This document shows, piece by piece, positions 1,511 through 61,670 of a stretch of DNA of 64,000 nt (position 1 is its first letter; each line of letters opens with the position of its first letter). The notes beneath the pieces were generated by a model. The model was not told the origin of the DNA and did not search any database. It saw only the letters and a program-made list of their open reading frames with translations. Source of the DNA: Candidatus Methanohalarchaeum thermophilum (lineage in GTDB: Archaea; Halobacteriota; Methanonatronarchaeia; Methanonatronarchaeales; Methanonatronarchaeaceae); assembly GCA_001914405.1 (NCBI GenBank), contig MSDW01000001.1, forward strand, positions 558,001 to 622,000. The letters are read 5' to 3'. The translations under genes and the position numbers were made by a program.

Positions 1511-2471
1511 ATTTAATGAAAAAACTATTTGAGGGGATTTGGCAGTACAAAATAAAGGACAAACCAATAGCAATGTCCCATCAAGTAAATTCGGAATGCA
1601 ACCTAAGATGTCCTTTTTGCTCTGACTGGAGAGAAAAAGGAGATCAAATGGATAAAAAAGAAATCTTCGATCTATTAGACGAAGCTCGTAAATTTGGTAT
1701 AATATTATACAACGCATGGAGTACAGAACCACTACTCAGGGATGAACTACCCGAAATACTCGAATATGCACATAAAAAAAATATGCTAACCTCAACTGTT
1801 ACAAACGGAAAACTTCTCGATAAAAGAATAGATGAATTAGATGACTTAGATTATTTAACAGTATCAGTAGATGGGATCTCCTATAATAAACAAATAAGAG
1901 GAATAAAACCATCTGAATTAATAAAAAGCCTAAAAAAAGCAAAAAATAAAGATATATCAGTTTCATTGAATTGCGTCATAACAAACAAAAATCTAGAAGA
2001 AGTCCTAGATGTAGTAAAATTCGCAGAAAAAAATGATTTACTCGTTTCTCTAGAACCAGTCTACAAACACGAAAACGTATCGAAAGAAACCTGGGATCAA
2101 TTTGGGATAAAAGATAAAAAAAGATACAAAAAACTAATTGACAACCTATTAAAATTAAAAGAAAAAAATTACCCAATTATTAACTCAAAAACTTACTTAA
2201 AAAACATTAAAGAAATAAATAACCTAAATAACTGCCAAAATCAAAATACAATACTACATATTGACTCAGATGGAAATATAATCTACTGTCGCGCCAAAAA
2301 ACAAAAACTAGGGAACTACAAAGACGGCATAAATAATATCTGGGATAAAACAAAAGGAAAAAGAGAAGAAATTGCTAAAGAATGTAACGGATGCCACTTT
2401 TTTGGGTACATAGAGTCATCATACATGGATAAACTAAAAATAGAACCCATATACAATATATTAAAAAATAT

Positions 2472-2475
<4 letters not shown>
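1507..2475 (+). CDS. Radical SAM protein, third of a tandem set
   Basis: A 322-residue protein with a CxxxCxxC motif near residue 32 (SECNLRCPFC). The classic GGEP loop is replaced by a WSTEPLL stretch near residue 75, which occupies the expected place. The C-terminal third has spaced cysteines (NNCQN, IYCRAK, ECNGCHF) that could bind an auxiliary cluster. The start overlaps the previous stop by 4 bases, implying translational coupling; an ATG nine bases downstream is also possible. Codon use is noticeably more A-rich than in the preceding gene. The stop TAA lies inside the conserved leader of the 413-bp repeat element that follows, so that element inserted exactly at the gene end. Confidence 0.85.
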
Positions 2476-2884
<409 letters not shown>

Positions 2885-4627: not shown

Positions 4628-5697
4628 AAGCTGAAAAAAACCATTGTCTGTAAAATAACAGAACCCAACAAAGGCAAACTCAAAGCAATCAAAAAAGAAT
4701 ACAGCAAGGCTCAGAGATATATTCATGGAGAAACGACTGACCTCTATTCTGCAACCAAGCAGGCGATGGACAAATATATCGACATCGAGAAATTGAAAGA
4801 TGGTAAAGATTACCCGTTGTTCTTGAGAAATGACACATTTAGGGTAGAAAAAGCTGAGAACACCAAGGAATTTGGTTACTGGGCTAAGATACCAGTAAGG
4901 GATGTCTATGGTGGTGTTTGGGTTCCAGTGAAACCACATGAAGAGATAAAACTAACATACAACATCAAGGATTCAAAGATTGTTAGAAAGGATTATGTTT
5001 TCGAGTTCCATCTATCAGTTTCCAAGGAAGTGGAGCCTGTTGAAGCATATAAGGGTGTCTTGGGAGTTGATTTGGGTTTGAATAAGCTTGCAACTTGCGT
5101 CAGGTTGCCTAGCCGTCAAACCCAACGCCACAGAACCCACATAGGCGATATACAGAACAAGTACTACTTTCTTAGAAGAAACTGTAAGAACGGCTATGTC
5201 CAAAAGAGATAGGATAACTAGGACAGTGACAAAGTAGAGGATATCTGCCACAAAGTAAGCAGAAAATAGTGGATACAGTGGAAGAGAAGAACTTGTTGAT
5301 AGTCCTTGGTGACCTAAAAGGTATACAAGAATAGGATAAAGATAGAAAAATGAATAGGAAACTCTACAACTTCCCACACTAGAAAATATGAAACTAAATC
5401 AAGTAAAATGCAAAGTGGGAGGGCATAGAGGTTGTATTGGTAAGTGAAGCATACACCAGCCAACGATGTTCTAGGTGTGGTGAGGTTGGCAACAAACACA
5501 AACACAGAGGCAGATTCAGGTGCAATAACTGTGGCCTTGAAACGAATAGGAATAAGAATGGAGCCCACAACATAGCCGTTCGGGGCATCGGAAAGTTTGA
5601 GAAAACCCCTTTTGATGCTAGGGGCCATGTGGCATGGCCCGAAGCCACTGCCGTTGACCCAGCCTCTGGATACTCCTCCTGTAGAGAGACAAGTTAG
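4628..5697 (+). pseudogene. tnpB: tnpB remnant (RNA-guided nuclease family), multiply disrupted
   Basis: The frame begins right after the upstream stop without an ATG, GTG or TTG. It reads as a TnpB up to about 5212, including the RuvC-I segment GVLGVDLGLNKLAT. It is then broken by several stops and at least one frameshift. The middle is still recognisable in other frames (DICHKVSRK, then IVDTVEEKNLLIVLGDLKGI). The zinc ribbon survives at 5437-5697 (CSRCG and CNNCG), but the RuvC-III aspartate region reads ETNRNKNGAHN, with Asn where Asp is expected. Catalytically dead by decay. TnpB proteins are omegaRNA-guided DNA nucleases of IS200/IS605 elements. Confidence 0.85.
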
Positions 5698-6671: not shown

Positions 6672-7158
6672 TCTTTATCTATTTGACTGAGAAGACACCT
6701 TCCTAAATCTTTTGATTTAGGTGGGTGATGAATTGGAGTGATTTTATAGAGTTGGAGGCAGAAGACTCGTGTTCTTCAAGGGGCATGGGATGAATGCCTG
6801 TAATAACATTTGAATGATTTTGGAACTGAGTTAAGCTTTGGCTGTTAGGCGTTCTGCCTTATCAAACAAATGCGGGCCGATTTCTCTGTTTATTGGCTAA
6901 AGAAATCTCCCTAGGTAACCTTGAAACAGTTCTTGGAGTAGGGGGTTCTAGTGGTTGGTGTGGAGCAGCCGCTGAGGAATAGGGGGACCTCTCTATGGGT
7001 TGGTATATGGGCTTTGTGCCCTAATCCAATTCTTCCCTCAAAGCGTAAGTTCCCTTGCTTATTGGGTGTATGAGACAAGCCCAGTAGATAACGTAGACTC
7101 CGACTTGTATAAGGCCTCACAAGGAAGCTCACTCCCTTTAGAGAGTGAGCCACTTCAC
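6672..7158 (+). mobile_element. Gene-less structured element, family 2, copy 1
   Basis: The left end has the leader GACTGAGAAGACACC and an AT-rich hairpin (about 6695-6725). The right end is a GCTCACTC/GAGTGAGC hairpin ending CACTTCAC at 7158. The interior (about 6829-7130) is clearly related to 12443-12750: shared blocks include GGCTAAAGAAATCTCC, GGTAACCTTGAAACAG, GTGGTTGGTGTGGAGCA, GTAAGTTCCCTTGCT and AAGGCCTCACAA. Differences between the copies sit in loops or look paired, and no reading frame is kept. Read as a structured RNA with IS605-like ends. Confidence 0.7.
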
Positions 7159-7541: not shown

Positions 7542-8900
7542 GTGAACTACCTCTTCCTAAATTAAGGATTTAGGAGGGGGTTCCCTGTTCTACCACTTGA
7601 CTTACTGGAGCTGAATTGGTTCCATCAGAGGTCGATGTGTCCGAGGGCTTTGACTTTGGACAGTCCCTGTTTTACCAAGTCTATAGCTCTATTCACTATG
7701 TTTATAGCTGCGTTCAAGTCTCGGTCAATTTCCAGGCCGCATCTCTCACATTTGTGTACTCTATCTGATAGTTCTTTATCTACCTTATTACTATAACTTG
7801 GGTTTGAGCAGCTTTTTGTAGTGTTCCTTGCCTCTACTTCTATGATTTGCTTATCAGCTTGTGAAGCTTTGTAAGCAAGCAATGAAACAAACTCGTTCCA
7901 AGCGTGATTAGCTATATGTCTATTTAGGGCGTTGCTTCTTCCTCTGATAGGTTCTTACTATCTAAGGCTTCTACCGCTATTACATCGTATTTGTCGCTAT
8001 ATGCTCTTGATAGTTTATGTAAGAAGTCTCTTCGTGCATCTCTCAGTTTTTTGTGTGTTTTAGCTAATCTTTTCTTTTGTCTTTTTCAGTTGTTGCTTCC
8101 TTTTTCTTTCCTGGATAGTTTCTTTTGTTCTTTCTTGATTTTCTCGTATTTACTGTATAACAAGTCTTTTAAGTCCTCTATTTCTCTATCTTTACTATCA
8201 GTTAAGAAGTTGGATACGTTTAGGTCTATTCCTATTATGTCGCTGTCTTTTGTGATTGGTTTTTTGTCGGGTTTTGGAACTTTTAGTTGGAGTATGATTT
8301 TCGAGTCACCGCAACTGTATTCTTTTATTATAACTCCTTTGACCTCAGCGTTTTTAGGGATTGGTCTGTGGAAGTTTACGGGTATTTTTCCTTATCTTTG
8401 ATAGATGTATATTTCTTTTTTCTTGGTCTATTTTGAATCCTGACTGATTGTATTCAATGATATTAATCGAGTTCTTGTACCTTAACTTTCTAACCTTTTT
8501 TTCCTTTCTCTTTTTTTGTGTTTAGGCCTTTGATTGCGTTGTATATTCTTCCTATTGTTTGTTGAGCAGTCTTTGAATATACATTTTGGAACTCTGGGTT
8601 TGATGTCTTTTTCCACTCTGGTAACCTATTATACATCTTATACTTTTGGTATTTACTCATCTGATTTGTTTAATGTTTCTAGTGCCTTATTGTAAATGTC
8701 TTTGTGTATCTTGAAGTGCTTCATCAGTTCTTCCTTATCTTCCTTTGTTGGATTGGCATCGTATCTGTATGAAAGCGACTGTAAGCCCATCTTAAACCTA
8801 TTTATAGGTTCGTGGTTTAAAAGTATTGTAGGGGGTTGATGCATCTCGCTACTAAAATCAGAGATTTTGGAGAGAGGTCTTCTCAACTACTAAGATAAAA
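7542..8900 (-). mobile_element. IS1341-type element with decayed tnpB (minus strand)
   Basis: Read on the minus strand, the left end at about 8845-8900 has the leader TTTTATCTTAGTAGTTGAGA, the trailing GACC and an AT-rich hairpin. The right end at about 7542-7583 is a CCTAAATCCTTAATTTAGG hairpin followed by AAGAGGTAGTTCAC. The whole length between the ends is taken by a tnpB pseudogene. No tnpA. The ends match those of the solo hairpins and gene-less elements. Confidence 0.75.
7625..8790 (-). pseudogene. tnpB: tnpB pseudogene, full length but frameshifted
   Basis: The start is ATG at 8790 (MGLQSLSYRYDANPTKEDKE). Successive fragments in several frames reconstruct a complete TnpB. These are an N-terminal helical part, a RuvC-I region (IIGIDLNVSNFL), a RuvC-II region (VIAVEALDSKNL, with Glu in the expected place) and a zinc ribbon/RuvC-III part in 7625-7882 (CERCGLEIDRDLNAAINI). 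Stops and frameshifts occur near 8660, 8400, 8087 and 7930-7690. Unlike the intact copy at 13.3 kb it keeps the RuvC-II glutamate and the RuvC-III Asp, so it decayed by frameshift rather than active-site loss. Confidence 0.85.
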
Positions 8901-12351: not shown

Positions 12352-12792
12352 TTTTATCTTGGTGGTTGAGAAGACCTCTCTCCAAAATCTCTGATTTTGG
12401 TAGAAGGATGAATCAACCACAAATTTCCAATGGTTCTAAGACCAGTTAAGTTTTGGCTGTTAGGTGTTCTGGCTTGAACAGATTACGAGGCCCCTTTGGA
12501 TTGTTTCATTTGGCTAAAGAAATCTCCTCAGGTAACCTTGAAACAGATCTGGAGTAGGGGTCCTAGGTGGTTGGTGTGGAGCAACCATTGAGGAATAAGA
12601 GTAGCCATTGTGTAGCTATGTAGCTAATATATGGGCTCTTGTATCTGCCCTAATCCAGTTTTCCTCAAACCGTAAGTTCCCTTGCTGACTGGGTCTATGA
12701 GACAAACACACTGAACAAGGCAACTCCACTCTGGATAAGGCCTCACAAAGAACCCCCTCCAAAATCCCTTGATTTAGATAGAGGTAGTTGAC
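12352..12792 (+). mobile_element. Gene-less structured element, family 2, copy 2
   Basis: The leader TTTTATCTTGGTGGTTGAGA and a hairpin at about 12375-12405 mark the left end. A CCAAAATCCCTTGATTTAG-type hairpin and GAGGTAGTTGAC at 12792 mark the right end. The interior shares many blocks in order with 6829-7130, with a variable GGGC/GCCC-closed hairpin of different length in the middle. There are no ORFs of note. A GTGAAGTGACC segment with spacer at 12309-12351 precedes it and may be part of a compound unit. Confidence 0.7.
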
Positions 12793-13161
12793 TATTGGCA
12801 GAAGAGATTTTTGTGTGGTAGGAAGGAGGTAAAAGGTGTTAATAAACTCTTTTAAGGTGAATCTATGTTTTTTTAGGGGGGAGAATGGTTCACAACCTAT
12901 TTTGTTGGGGGAAATAACTATGTGGAATAAGAATAATATGATTAAAAGGTGATTGGTTAGGTATCTCTGAGATAGTTGATTTTTGATTCTATAGGTTTTT
13001 CAGAGATATTTGCTAAAAGGTTTAGGGGATGTTTTTTCTTTGAAATCTATTTAACTTTTTTTTGGTGAGAAATCCCTGTCCTTAATCTTTGATTTAGGTT
13101 AGGGATGAATCACCACAAGATGTATATAAGTAGTTAAATAATGTTTATATAGGAGATATAT

Positions 13162-13302
13162 ATGGAAGACCCGACAACCATACAGATAGAAAAAGAAACA
13201 CGGAAGAAACTCAAGGAACTAAGGATAACAAAGAGAGAAACATACGACGAAATATTAAATAGGTTGATGAAAAATGCAACTAACTCAAAAAATAAAGATT
13301 GA
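13162..13302 (+). CDS. Small ribbon-helix-helix-like protein overlapping tnpB
   Basis: A 46-residue ORF: a strand-like start (TTIQIEKETRKKLKELR) and a helix-turn-helix continuation (TKRETYDEILNRLMKN). This matches the pattern of small ribbon-helix-helix repressors (strand, helix, turn with T/S, helix). A good ribosome site (AGGAGATATAT) sits just upstream. Its end overlaps the tnpB start by 29 bases in another frame, so the two are likely translationally coupled. A comparable small ORF precedes the broken tnpB at 4.5 kb. Likely a DNA-binding regulator of the element (inference). Confidence 0.65.
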   Translation: MEDPTTIQIEKETRKKLKELRITKRETYDEILNRLMKNATNSKNKD

Positions 13303-14554
13303 GCCAACAGAAGAACAAGAAGAAGTTCTTACTTCTCTTTCTGAAATATGTAGGTTGCTCTATAATTTTTCACTCAAAGAAAGAATAGAGAACTGGAAAG
13401 AAAACAAGAACAAACCAAAAGAAGAAAGAAACTACATTACATACACAGACCAACAAAATAAGTTACCCAAATTAAAAGAAGAATACCCAAAATACAACTG
13501 GGTGTATTTAAAAGTCTTACAAATGATTTTAAAGAAACTGGACGCCAATTACAAGTCCTTCTTCTCTCTATGGAAAAAAGGAGACAATAAAGCGAAACCA
13601 CCAAGATTCAAAGGCAGTAAATACTTCACAAACCTATGCTATAACCAATCCGGGTTCAAAATAAAAAAAGAGGAAATAAAATTTTCTCACAACCACCCAG
13701 ACAAAACAGAACTATCTTTTGATATTCCAACCAAGTTTCATTTAGAAGATAAGAACATTAAACAAATCGAAATCTTCAGAGACGAAATTAAAGAAGAATA
13801 CTATATCTCAATATCTTACGAGGTAGATACTCCAAAATACAAAGATAACGGAAAGTATCAAGCTTTCGATTTAGGAGTTAACAAACACATAGGAGTTAAT
13901 ATGAGTGGGAAGTTCGTTGAGTTCAAGAACCCAAGACCAGACAAGTATTGGCAATCGAAAATAGAAGAAGTTCAATCAAAAAAAGACAGATGTAAAAAAG
14001 GAAGTAATAGATGGAAATGGTATAACAAGAAATTACAACAGATGAAAAGAAAACTTGCTAATCAAATGAAGGATTGGCAACATAAATTAAGTAAAAAAAT
14101 AGTTGAGAACACTAAAGCGAATACTATAGTAGTTGGAGATTTAGATACTAAAGATATGGCACAGAACAACAAGAATGTAGAGGGCTTGAACAGGAGTTTA
14201 CAAAACACAGGCACCATAGGTAGATTCGTTAGATTTCTAATCTACAAGGCAGAACTTGTAGGTAAGAAGGTAATAGAAATCAACGAAGCAAACACTACCA
14301 AAAAGTGCTGTGTCTGTGGAAAGAAACAGGATATGCCATTACATAAAAGAACTTATAAATGTGATTGTGGAAACGAAATTGACAGAGACAAAAACTCTGC
14401 TATCAATATAATGAATCGTTTCCTATCACAAGAACGCTCTGTGAACGAGCAATCTTCCTTTATGGAAGATTTTCTGCGACAAACAGGTTTGGAATACGCC
14501 AACCAGCAAATGTCCAAACACTCGCAGGAAACCCCTTCCTCACGAACAACGTGA
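13274..14554 (+). CDS. tnpB: TnpB, RNA-guided nuclease of an IS1341-type element
   Basis: A 426-residue protein, full length for the family. The N-terminus (MQLTQKIKIEPTEEQEEVL) is a typical TnpB start. RuvC-I is QAFDLGVNKHIGVN (Asp near residue 199). The RuvC-II region is TIVVGDLDTKDM, where the usual catalytic Glu is Gly. The zinc ribbon has CCVCGKK and YKCDCG, directly followed by RuvC-III NEIDRDKNSAINI (Asp). Some TnpB clades keep the second acidic residue at a displaced site, so this copy may be active with a rearranged site, or nuclease-dead. The 3' end overlaps the right-end hairpin, consistent with omegaRNA processing from the tnpB transcript. Confidence 0.93.
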   Translation: MQLTQKIKIEPTEEQEEVLTSLSEICRLLYNFSLKERIENWKENKNKPKEERNYITYTDQQNKLPKLKEEYPKYNWVYLKVLQMILKKLDANYKSFFSLWKKGDNKAKPPRFKGSKYFTNLCYNQSGFKIKKEEIKFSHNHPDKTELSFDIPTKFHLEDKNIKQIEIFRDEIKEEYYISISYEVDTPKYKDNGKYQAFDLGVNKHIGVNMSGKFVEFKNPRPDKYWQSKIEEVQSKKDRCKKGSNRWKWYNKKLQQMKRKLANQMKDWQHKLSKKIVENTKANTIVVGDLDTKDMAQNNKNVEGLNRSLQNTGTIGRFVRFLIYKAELVGKKVIEINEANTTKKCCVCGKKQDMPLHKRTYKCDCGNEIDRDKNSAINIMNRFLSQERSVNEQSSFMEDFLRQTGLEYANQQMSKHSQETPSSRTT

Positions 14555-14627
14555 GCTAGGTAGGGGTAGTTCACTGCTTTTGTATTTATAAAGGATGAAT
14601 AAAGATCTATTGAATGGAGATAAAAAA

Positions 14628-19009: not shown

Positions 19010-19399
19010 TTAATTCCTTAAAATCTTTTTCGCAAGTAATGCTGCATTATCAGCTCTTCCAATTCCAACACAAGCTACTGGAACTCCTTTAGGCATTTGT
19101 ACTATACTTAATAAAGAATCTAACCCACCTAGTTTAGCATCAACAGGTACTCCAATCACTGGTTTACTCGTATTTGACGCAATAGAACCAGGTAAAGCAG
19201 CTGATAAACCTGCTATTCCGATAAATACATCTGCTTCAGTTTCTTCAACGAAATCTACAAGTTTTTCAGGATCTCTATGAGCTGAGATAACCTTTTTAAC
19301 ATAATCTATATTCTCCGAGTCCAGAACCTCAAAAGCCTTTTCTGCAACAGGCATATCAGAATCAGAACCCAAAACAACCGCTACATCAGTCATAATCAT
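19010..19399 (-). CDS. purE: 5-(carboxyamino)imidazole ribonucleotide mutase PurE
   Basis: A 129-residue protein, short as in class I-like archaeal PurE. Motifs are [28 protein letters not shown] (catalytic His) and [13 protein letters not shown]. It rearranges N5-CAIR to CAIR (or carboxylates AIR) in purine synthesis. The ATG at 19399 is chosen because AGGT lies five bases upstream; another ATG six bases on is possible. It converges with thiC; AIR is a substrate of both pathways. A distant relative, larB, is at 45 kb. Confidence 0.92.
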
Positions 19400-19527
19400 C
19401 AACTACCTTATTTTATGAACTTGAAGGACTATAACCTTAACTCACTCCTCGATTTAACTAAAAAATAAATCGACACTTAAAAAATTAAATATAAATTAAA
19501 GGAAAAAAGTAGATAATGGTTGCATAA

Positions 19528-20035
19528 GTGAAGTGGCTCTTACTTTACTCATGTTTATTTGTGGGCCGTAGGTTTTCCGATGTATCCTACTTATCTTGAG
19601 AGGAGTTTTACTTTTATATTAGGGGCTTCTTTTTCAGCACCCTAAAGTCAACATCGGAGAACTATTTTCTTCCTGAGAGAAGACTTAGATCTAGGCGCAA
19701 AGTAAAATATCTATAGTATTTACTATAGATATAAGTGAGGCGGAGAACCCTTTAGCTTTGCCGTTGGGGTGAATACCATAACTTTTATGTTGTGGGAGTG
19801 ACGGCTTTGTATAACTCCTAAAGGAACTCTCCTTTGGGTGATTGGTCTCTGTCTGTACTGTTTCCCAAGAACCTTTAACTCTTTTAGGGGGGAGTTGAGG
19901 GTGACCGGTAGCGGGTTTCTGTGAACGGGCCGACCCTCAGTCCTTGTACACCGCTTGAGGGTATTATACTGGGGTGTGCAGGAGGTTTTAATTAATCTTT
20001 GGGAACCTCCTTGGCTCTGCCGAGAGGTAGTTCAC
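19528..20035 (+). mobile_element. 508-bp gene-less structured element, family 3
   Basis: It starts with GTGAAGTGG and ends with GAGAGGTAGTTCAC, matching family ends. It is dense in potential stems. One is a perfect 12-bp hairpin at 19707-19732 (ATATCTATAGTA / TACTATAGATAT). Others are a CCATAAC/GTTGTGG hairpin near 19788-19806, a long-range pairing of CCGATGT (~19577) with ACATCGG (~19652), and a GGAGGTT/AACCTCC stem near 19981-20010. G+C is higher than in its surroundings. No ORF is supported. Likely a structured non-coding RNA between purE and an aminotransferase gene. Confidence 0.6.
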
Positions 20036-20093
20036 ACCATAGGATTTTTAGTTAATAACTTTAAACTTTTATTGTTTCTTTGGATGTGAAAAG

Positions 20094-21616
<1,523 letters not shown>

Positions 21617-23504: not shown

Positions 23505-23939
23505 TGCCTCTAAAATTTACTTCTCAAAAAATTTAAGTTTTCTCCTCTTATCTTAAGGATCAAATATGGTTCTATTTCTAGGGACAAGGATACATTAAAC
23601 CGAAACATTTTAATGGTTAAAGTATTGATTTATGACTAAAAGACAGTTAGTTGGCTTGTCTACCTTCTATATGCTATAAGTCAATCCTAATCCTCAAGAA
23701 AGGTAGCTAAATATACTGGAACCCAATATTAAGAGATGGTTAGGAGAGGTCTCAGGGTTCTGTAGGAAAAGGGTATTACTAGCATAGAATATATCTACCA
23801 TGGTGAATAAAAGGAACCATAATGAGTTAATAGGTATATCTGTATAGGGCTGCTCTAATCTAAAACTGCTTACGGAACGAAATGTTCCGGTATTAGATTG
23901 GTTTTATAAAAAATTGGAATGGAAAACTAAGTGGTGTTA
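23505..23939. other. Intergenic region without a recognised gene
   Basis: AT-rich, with no ORF that I believe. An inverted repeat-like CTTACGGAACGAAATGTTCCG segment (near 23869) could form a hairpin. Nothing else stands out. Confidence 0.4.
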
Positions 23940-61213: not shown

Positions 61214-61257
61214 AAAACACATTTTCTTTATTTTATTTTATTTTATTTCTTTGTTTT

Positions 61258-61670
<413 letters not shown>

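What the first reader, a model, noticed from the sequence alone, without database searches (positions are those of the whole stretch)
19528..20035. 508-bp structured non-coding element between purE and an aminotransferase gene
GC-richer than its surroundings, many nested stems including a perfect 12-bp hairpin, and family-type ends. Its interior does not resemble the other two families, so there may be several RNA types using the same ends.
Basis: partly seen in the sequence, partly recalled or inferred. Interest (0 to 1): 0.75.

Follow-up and report, generated by a model that had tools for sequence, protein, structure and literature searches.

The report
Transposon fragment carrying a guide-RNA scaffold
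This is a short jumping-DNA element that has lost its protein genes but still looks like the guide-RNA part of a transposon nuclease, sitting on the stump of another such element; it is one of a swarm of similar elements in a little-known archaeon.

Summary
The 508-bp "element" is two things. (a) 19712-20035 (+), 324 nt: a non-autonomous IS200/IS605 element with 6 further diverged copies in this genome. Its left end and 3' end match a complete element in the same genome that encodes TnpA and TnpB. Its 3' half has the layout of the TnpB guide-RNA (omega/reRNA) scaffold: two stem domains, a right-end hairpin, and a 3'-terminal GUUCAC that is the exact complement of the stem-2 loop GUGAAC (omega-RNA pseudoknot). 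A core covariance model finds 30 copies in the genome; 27 have no tnpB beside them. It also hits the 3' end of a tnpB in another archaeal family, where Rfam's sot2652 (a Halobacterium omega RNA) also matches weakly. (b) 19528-19711 (-): the truncated 3' half of a different non-autonomous element type. The perfect 12-bp hairpin is private to this copy. Elements of this kind (PATEs) are known; unusual here are the number, variety and retained RNA fold of guide-RNA-only elements. Use by TnpB in trans is inferred, not shown.

The parts
19528..19711 (-). Truncated 3' half of a type-II non-autonomous IS605-like element, with its own right end at 19528 (minus-strand ...GAGCCACTTCAC); 5' half and left end not found
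   Evidence: nhmmer with a profile of 9 type-II elements matches 19710-19597 (-), E 6e-4 in the whole window and 3.4e-6 on the segment alone; partial paralogues L008 and L009
19712..20035 (+). Non-autonomous IS200/IS605-type element 'W' (type III), 324 nt; left boundary uncertain by about 5 nt
   Evidence: 7 copies in the genome with sharp ends, 70-80% identity of the 6 others to W
19707..19732 (+).
   Evidence: read; absent in 6 of 6 other copies
19738..19779 (+). Left end (LE) with subterminal hairpin, shared with the tnpA/tnpB element on contig C2
   Evidence: LE alignment A3; LE model match at contig C1:577724-577780, bits 51
19817..19838 (+). Interior hairpin CCTAAAGG...CCTTTGGG, also seen in type G and type I elements
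   Evidence: read; type G profile matches 19733-19841, E 9.7e-14
19857..19934 (+). Omega-RNA core: stem 1 with inner hairpin, then stem 2 (19914-19918 / 19927-19931)
   Evidence: R3 covariance model, 59.5 bits, the only window match below E 0.3 (W was in the training set); covariation
19921..19926 (+). Stem-2 loop GUGAAC, one side of the pseudoknot
20010..20024 (+). Right-end hairpin CTTGGC-TCT-GCCGAG
   Evidence: read; aligned with the right end of the tnpB element
20030..20035 (+). 3'-terminal GTTCAC, complement of the stem-2 loop; last bases of the element
20036..20051 (+). Flank that would supply the guide if an omega RNA is made from this element (inferred)
   Evidence: by analogy with the ~16-nt guide of ISDra2 reRNA (PMC8612924, passage seen)

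Best explanation
19712-20035 is a non-autonomous IS200/IS605-family element. It can be moved in trans by a Y1 transposase (TnpA) that recognises its left-end and right-end hairpins as single-stranded DNA, and it retains the 3'-terminal omega/reRNA scaffold of a TnpB nuclease. If transcribed through its 3' end, it would give a scaffold RNA whose guide is the first ~16 nt of the flank at 20036. TnpB supplied in trans would then cut the empty donor site after excision and favour keeping or restoring the element. SHOWN by sequence: dispersed copies with sharp ends, ends shared with a tnpA/tnpB element in the same genome, homology of the 3' core to tnpB-linked 3' ends, covarying stems between types, loop-terminus complementarity. 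INFERRED: mobility in trans, transcription, TnpB loading, retention by cutting. 19528-19711 is the truncated stump of a second, type-II element of the same general kind on the other strand, next to or into which W came to lie. The confidence given is for the identity (non-autonomous IS605 element with an omega-RNA-derived 3' half); for actual use of the RNA by TnpB in trans I would give about 0.5.
For: Copies: 7 in the own genome (aligned). Autonomous partner: L014:2005-3775 (-) has the same LE, a 133-aa TnpA (Pfam Y1_Tnp, E 7.5e-40), a 419-aa TnpB (Cas12f1-like_TNB, E 7e-23) and the same RE ending GTAGTTCAC; beside it lies an internal-deletion copy of 398 nt keeping LE and the tnpB 3' end. 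RE model R2: 9 places = 7 W-type + these 2 (all 9 were in its training set). Core structure across 23 rows (W family, types I and G, the tnpB-linked copy): 89.5% of cells paired against 36-51% for slid structures and 79% for shuffles (0 of 500 reach); 37 cells changed on both sides against 15.8 shuffled (0 of 500). Stem 2 over 32 elements: 141 of 160 pairs, permutation mean 108.5, 0 of 20000 reach. Loop:3'-end complementarity full (6 of 6, G-U allowed) in 23 of 32 rows, with a compensatory switch GUGAAC/GUUCAC to GUGAAG/CUUCAC between types; 6 of 20000 permutations reach. Outside check: in a genome of another family, L077, R3 hits the 3' end of a tnpB (35% identical to the own TnpB) at 39.7 bits, with loop GUGGAG and terminal CUUCAC, and Rfam RF02657 sot2652, a Halobacterium omega RNA (PMC12558985), matches the same place end to end at E 0.015, below its gathering score.
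Against: No expression data; no proof of movement (no empty site with both flanks intact was found). Within W's own type III the stem-2 arms pair no better than when swapped among copies (30 of 35 against a mean of 30.6), and 5 of 7 type-III copies, W not among them, have an imperfect loop-terminus match: some copies look decayed and no selection on RNA after loss of tnpB is shown inside this type. The consensus fold of the 7 full copies has little covariation (term -0.35). W lacks an obvious archaeal promoter box (0 of 7 type III). R3 was built from W and most of the copies it finds. Permutations ignore relatedness of the rows.
Confidence: 0.8

Rival explanations
1. Passive PATE: the element moves by TnpA in trans, but the RNA-like 3' half is only a leftover of tnpB and has no role as RNA.
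For: PATEs as degenerate IS605 derivatives are known (PMC3119063, passages); a Halanaerobium PATE keeps the last 58 nt of tnpB plus the whole right end (PMC7290912, passage); the own genome has a direct deletion derivative; within type III stem 2 pairs no better than swapped arms.
Against: Compensatory changes in stem 1, stem 2 and the loop-terminus pair between types, and within type II (37 of 40 pairs against a mean of 33.6; 288 of 20000 reach), in copies without tnpB; TnpA is not known to need the core.
Confidence: 0.4
2. An independent structured RNA class (HEARO-, ROOL-, group II- or IStron-like) that uses transposon ends as a vehicle.
For: 300-500 nt, several elaborate interiors; strong folding.
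Against: No Rfam match to 19380-20120 except one at E=8 and none at gathering in the window; the core is homologous to the 3' end of tnpB, in this genome and in another family.
Confidence: 0.05
3. A host regulatory RNA or long 5' leader of the aminotransferase gene 59 nt downstream.
For: Same strand and adjacent.
Against: The same sequence occurs at 6 other places with unrelated flanks.
Confidence: 0.03

Closest known systems
PATEs (palindrome-associated transposable elements) of Haloquadratum walsbyi and Halanaerobium, PMC3119063 and PMC7290912 (passages read)
   Same: IS605-type near-terminal palindromes, no terminal inverted repeats, too short for a transposase, many copies, some derived by core deletion of an IS605 element, nested insertions
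   Different: The passages of these papers (2011, 2020) that I saw do not speak of guide RNA; here the retained part has a covarying omega-RNA core, and at least four interior architectures are seen
TnpB omega/reRNA, e.g. ISDra2 (PMC8612924, PMC10097598, passages) and Halobacterium sotRNA/omega RNA RF02656/RF02657 (PMC12558985, passages)
   Same: Derived from the right end, right-end hairpin, stem-2 loop paired with the terminal motif, guide expected from the 3' flank
   Different: Known ones overlap or follow a tnpB gene; here 27 of 30 core copies have no tnpB match beside them; types I, G and II insert about 150-200 nt between stem 2 and the right-end hairpin
IStrons (group I intron + IS605 with omega RNA) - recalled, paper not held
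   Same: Structured RNA joined to IS605 ends and omega RNA
   Different: No group I intron detected by Rfam

Membership tests
Non-autonomous IS200/IS605 element (PATE) | Multiple dispersed copies with sharp ends | tested here: met
   7 copies
Non-autonomous IS200/IS605 element (PATE) | Subterminal hairpins instead of terminal inverted repeats, ends shared with an element encoding a Y1 transposase | tested here: met
Non-autonomous IS200/IS605 element (PATE) | Too short to code for a transposase | tested here: met
   no ORF of 80 aa or more in 19528-20035
Non-autonomous IS200/IS605 element (PATE) | Insertion without target duplication, 3' of a fixed short motif | tested here: inconclusive
   TATA at the left junction of 35 of 35 elements, but the extraction was anchored on it; the -2 T is 32 of 35; no complete empty site
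Non-autonomous IS200/IS605 element (PATE) | Transposition in trans by TnpA | not testable with these tools
   needs an experiment
TnpB omega/reRNA | Homology to the 3' end of tnpB plus right end | tested here: met
TnpB omega/reRNA | Pseudoknot between a hairpin loop and the terminal motif | tested here: met
   W 6 of 6 Watson-Crick pairs; compensatory change between types, (complementarity only; the fold itself is not measured)
TnpB omega/reRNA | Match to Rfam omega/sot families RF02656/RF02657 | tested here: not met
   no such match to W up to E=10; a weak one to the tnpB-linked L077
TnpB omega/reRNA | Transcribed, bound by TnpB, guides cleavage | not testable with these tools
   no expression data
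HEARO / ROOL / group II intron | Match to the Rfam covariance model | tested here: not met

The most novel reading that the evidence does not exclude
Methanonatronarchaeia-like archaea host a swarm of guide-RNA-only mobile elements: stand-alone omega-RNA genes that parasitise TnpA and TnpB of a few autonomous elements. They have diversified into several RNA architectures with added domains, some with their own promoter, and swap ends with one another, forming a multi-locus RNA-guided retention system.
Probability: 0.4. Interest if true: 0.75.

Novelty: new variant of a known kind. Interest (0 to 1): 0.5.

Why it matters
If these RNAs are loaded in trans, one TnpB would police dozens of insertion sites at once, and the guide RNA itself would be the unit that spreads. 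That would make testable how guide RNAs separated from their nuclease genes (a step proposed on the way from OMEGA systems to CRISPR) and whether selection acts on RNA in transposons without genes. The different, enlarged omega-RNA scaffolds are natural variants for structure-function work on TnpB. For annotation, it replaces an 'unknown structured RNA' by a named kind.

Tried and rejected
Rfam scan of the window at gathering (0 matches) and of 19380-20120 up to E=10 (one chance snoRNA hit). Whole-length consensus fold of 7 copies: weak covariation, not used as evidence. Empty-site search by joining the 5' and 3' flanks of 11 elements: no place matched across a junction; for W only a paralogue of the 5' flank (L008) runs up to the TATA. 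The idea that the 12-bp hairpin is a family feature: rejected. Archaeal promoter box as a general feature: a strict BRE+TATA pattern (consensus recalled) is in 7 of 11 type I, 0 of 9 type II, 0 of 7 type III, 0 of 5 type G, so not claimed for W. tnpB at 13274-14554 as the RNA partner: its 3' end gives no R3 match better than E 9; it has its own right end. Literature: searches for TnpB with non-autonomous/MITE/PATE/nonautonomous/standalone terms listed no paper on guide-RNA-only IS605 elements by title or abstract start, but only open-licence PMC papers are held, hits were not all read, and two likely papers (Meers 2023; Zedaveinyte 2024, both recalled) are not held. So no claim that this is unpublished.

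Rows dropped before counts: AUTOdel (same core as AUTO), L049 (deleted copy) and L071 (loop motif not found), which examined 32 of the 35 elements collected; L045, L053, L073, L074, L058, L060 were seen but not put into that set; L043 and AUTOdel were left out of alignment A5 (23 rows from 25 extracted). The right end of L055 was cut one base short by my pattern; the next base is T, so it truly lacks the final C, and its loop-end score is out of register.

Full report
What was asked.

The observation. The neighbours are as stated (AIRC domain, E 9e-49; class-V aminotransferase, E 9e-22). The stretch is GC-richer than its surroundings and folds better than shuffles. A perfect 12-bp hairpin is present (arms 19707-19718 / 19721-19732). 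However, searching the genome that holds the window (2,141,311 bases, 4 contigs) with 19500-20060 gave 10 places: W itself, six that cover about 19710-20040 only, and three short ones that cover other parts. Alignment shows that the copies begin at TATAG(T)ATTTAAGGCAG and end at GTAGTTCAC or a close variant, with unrelated flanks. The window copy is therefore 19712-20035. It differs by a 15-nt insertion near its left end, which creates the 12-bp hairpin; the other 6 copies lack it. The remaining 19528-19711 is, on the minus strand, a piece of another element type that ends ...CCACTTCAC at 19528 (paralogues L008, L009).

What the element is. One place that matches only the 3' end of W (L010) lies at the end of a tnpB gene. 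Its surroundings (L014) hold a complete IS200/IS605 element of 1771 nt: left end TATATTTTAAGGCAGAGAACCTCATGGCTCTGCCATGGGGGTGAATGCC, tnpA (133 aa, Y1_Tnp), tnpB (419 aa, Cas12f1-like TNB domain) and right end GGCTCTGCCGAGTGGGTAGTTCAC. The left end of the W family is nearly the same and the last ~170 nt of W align with the 3' end of that tnpB plus right end. About 0.7 kb away lies a 398-nt internal-deletion copy of it, so loss of the genes with retention of both ends is seen directly.

The RNA. In the tnpB-linked copy the 3' end reads CUCAAGAA-[hairpin]-UGAGAUGG..GGCAUCGG-[stem GGCCU loop UGUGAAC stem AGGCC]-...-[right-end hairpin]-GUUCAC. W has the same order. The loop GUGAAC and the terminal GUUCAC are exact complements. 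This is the pseudoknot layout described for omega RNA: in ISDra2, bases -5 to -3 pair with -103 to -105 (PMC10097598, passage); in Halobacterium, the second hairpin loop pairs with the terminal motif (PMC12558985, passage). Over 32 elements the loop-end pair is complete (6 of 6, counting G-U) in 23, and it switches from GUGAAC/GUUCAC to GUGAAG/CUUCAC between types. Stem 2 pairs 141 of 160 positions against 108.5 for permuted partners; 0 of 20000 permutations reach it even when each may choose the best of three registers. By type: II 37 of 40 (288 of 20000 reach); III 30 of 35 (15056 of 20000 reach, i.e. no signal); I and G carry no information. On alignment A5 (23 rows, 17 named pairs) 89.5% of cells pair against 36-51% when slid, and 37 cells have changes on both sides against 15.8 shuffled. 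So the structure is well supported across types, and not separately within the W family.

How widespread. Left-end model R1 (built from 11 rows, 9 of them from this genome): 37 matches in the own genome, 11 in the one relative of the same family, 1 weak one in G016, and none in the other 38 of the 41 genomes searched. Core model R3: 30 matches in the own genome at E<=0.01 (most were in the training set); in the 41-genome search 29 own matches, 2 in the family relative and 1 in G010. By position, 3 of the 30 adjoin a tnpB match and 27 do not; 23 of the 27 have a left end 122-158 nt upstream. The own genome has 18 TnpA-like and 58 TnpB-like places, many broken. Reading the loci shows at least four non-autonomous architectures with R1-type left ends: III (W and 6 copies, 303-324 nt), I (about 356-369 nt), G (332-339 nt, own genome and G001) and II (407-506 nt), plus a possible fifth in G001 (L058, L060, ending GUUGAC). 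Type II interiors also occur with different end hairpins (window 12352-12805; L009; read), so ends and interiors have been exchanged.

An outside check. The G010 match (L077) lies at the 3' end of a tnpB 35% identical to the own one; it has the same core, loop GUGGAG and terminal CUUCAC. Rfam's sot2652 (RF02657) matches L077:1773-2014 over its full length at 27.6 bits, E 0.015, below its gathering score of 61. Sot RNAs are the Halobacterium omega RNAs (PMC12558985, passages). This ties the core to an RNA family known as omega RNA, although the R3 model that found the place was built from W and its relatives.

How it most likely works. TnpA in trans would excise and insert the single-stranded element by its end hairpins (mechanism as described in PMC7290912 and PMC8612924, passages). 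A transcript through the 3' end would be an omega RNA with the guide from the flank. TnpB would cut the empty site, favouring retention; TnpB's role in retention and spread is argued in PMC11870625 (passages). None of these steps was tested for W. W itself has an intact loop-terminus pair and stem 2 (with three G-U pairs), a right-end hairpin and a somewhat decayed left-end hairpin. It may be a competent RNA source or a fossil.

Novelty. PATEs have been known since 2011 in haloarchaea, and one that keeps the tnpB tail and right end was described in 2020. W is a member of that kind. What I did not find described in the papers I could search is a swarm of such elements with covarying, enlarged omega-RNA scaffolds; the library is partial, and two likely papers are not held.

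Noticed in passing
window 6744-7158 and 12392-12759: Two type-II elements of the same general kind, + strand (E 1.9e-74 and 4.1e-58); partial ones at 23795-23891 and 61815-61752.
   Followed up: partly
window 13060-14572: tnpB element with an open 426-aa TnpB, LE hairpin at about 13068 and RE ...GGTAGGGGTAGTTCAC; other TnpB group, no R3-type core.
   Followed up: partly
window 5242-5598 (+) and 7688-8035 (-): tnpB remnants with several stop codons.
   Followed up: no
window 2471-2770 and 61257-61556: 300-nt direct repeat, 98% identical, 58.8 kb apart: looks like a recently copied element with AAATCTTTGATTT-type end hairpins.
   Followed up: no
L034, L037, L038, L039, L047, L051, L070 (element positions 53-68): Type I elements carry a strict archaeal BRE+TATA-like box in 7 of 11; background 0.06 per kb and strand in the window. 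May be an own promoter for the RNA.
   Followed up: partly
L058 and L060 (G001): A further ~400-nt non-autonomous type with terminal GUUGAC and a GCCCCGUCCCUUGGGGC right-end hairpin.
   Followed up: no
L077:1773-2014 (G010): tnpB 3' end with a long insertion between stem 2 and the right end and a sub-threshold sot2652 match; could be used to extend RF02657.
   Followed up: partly
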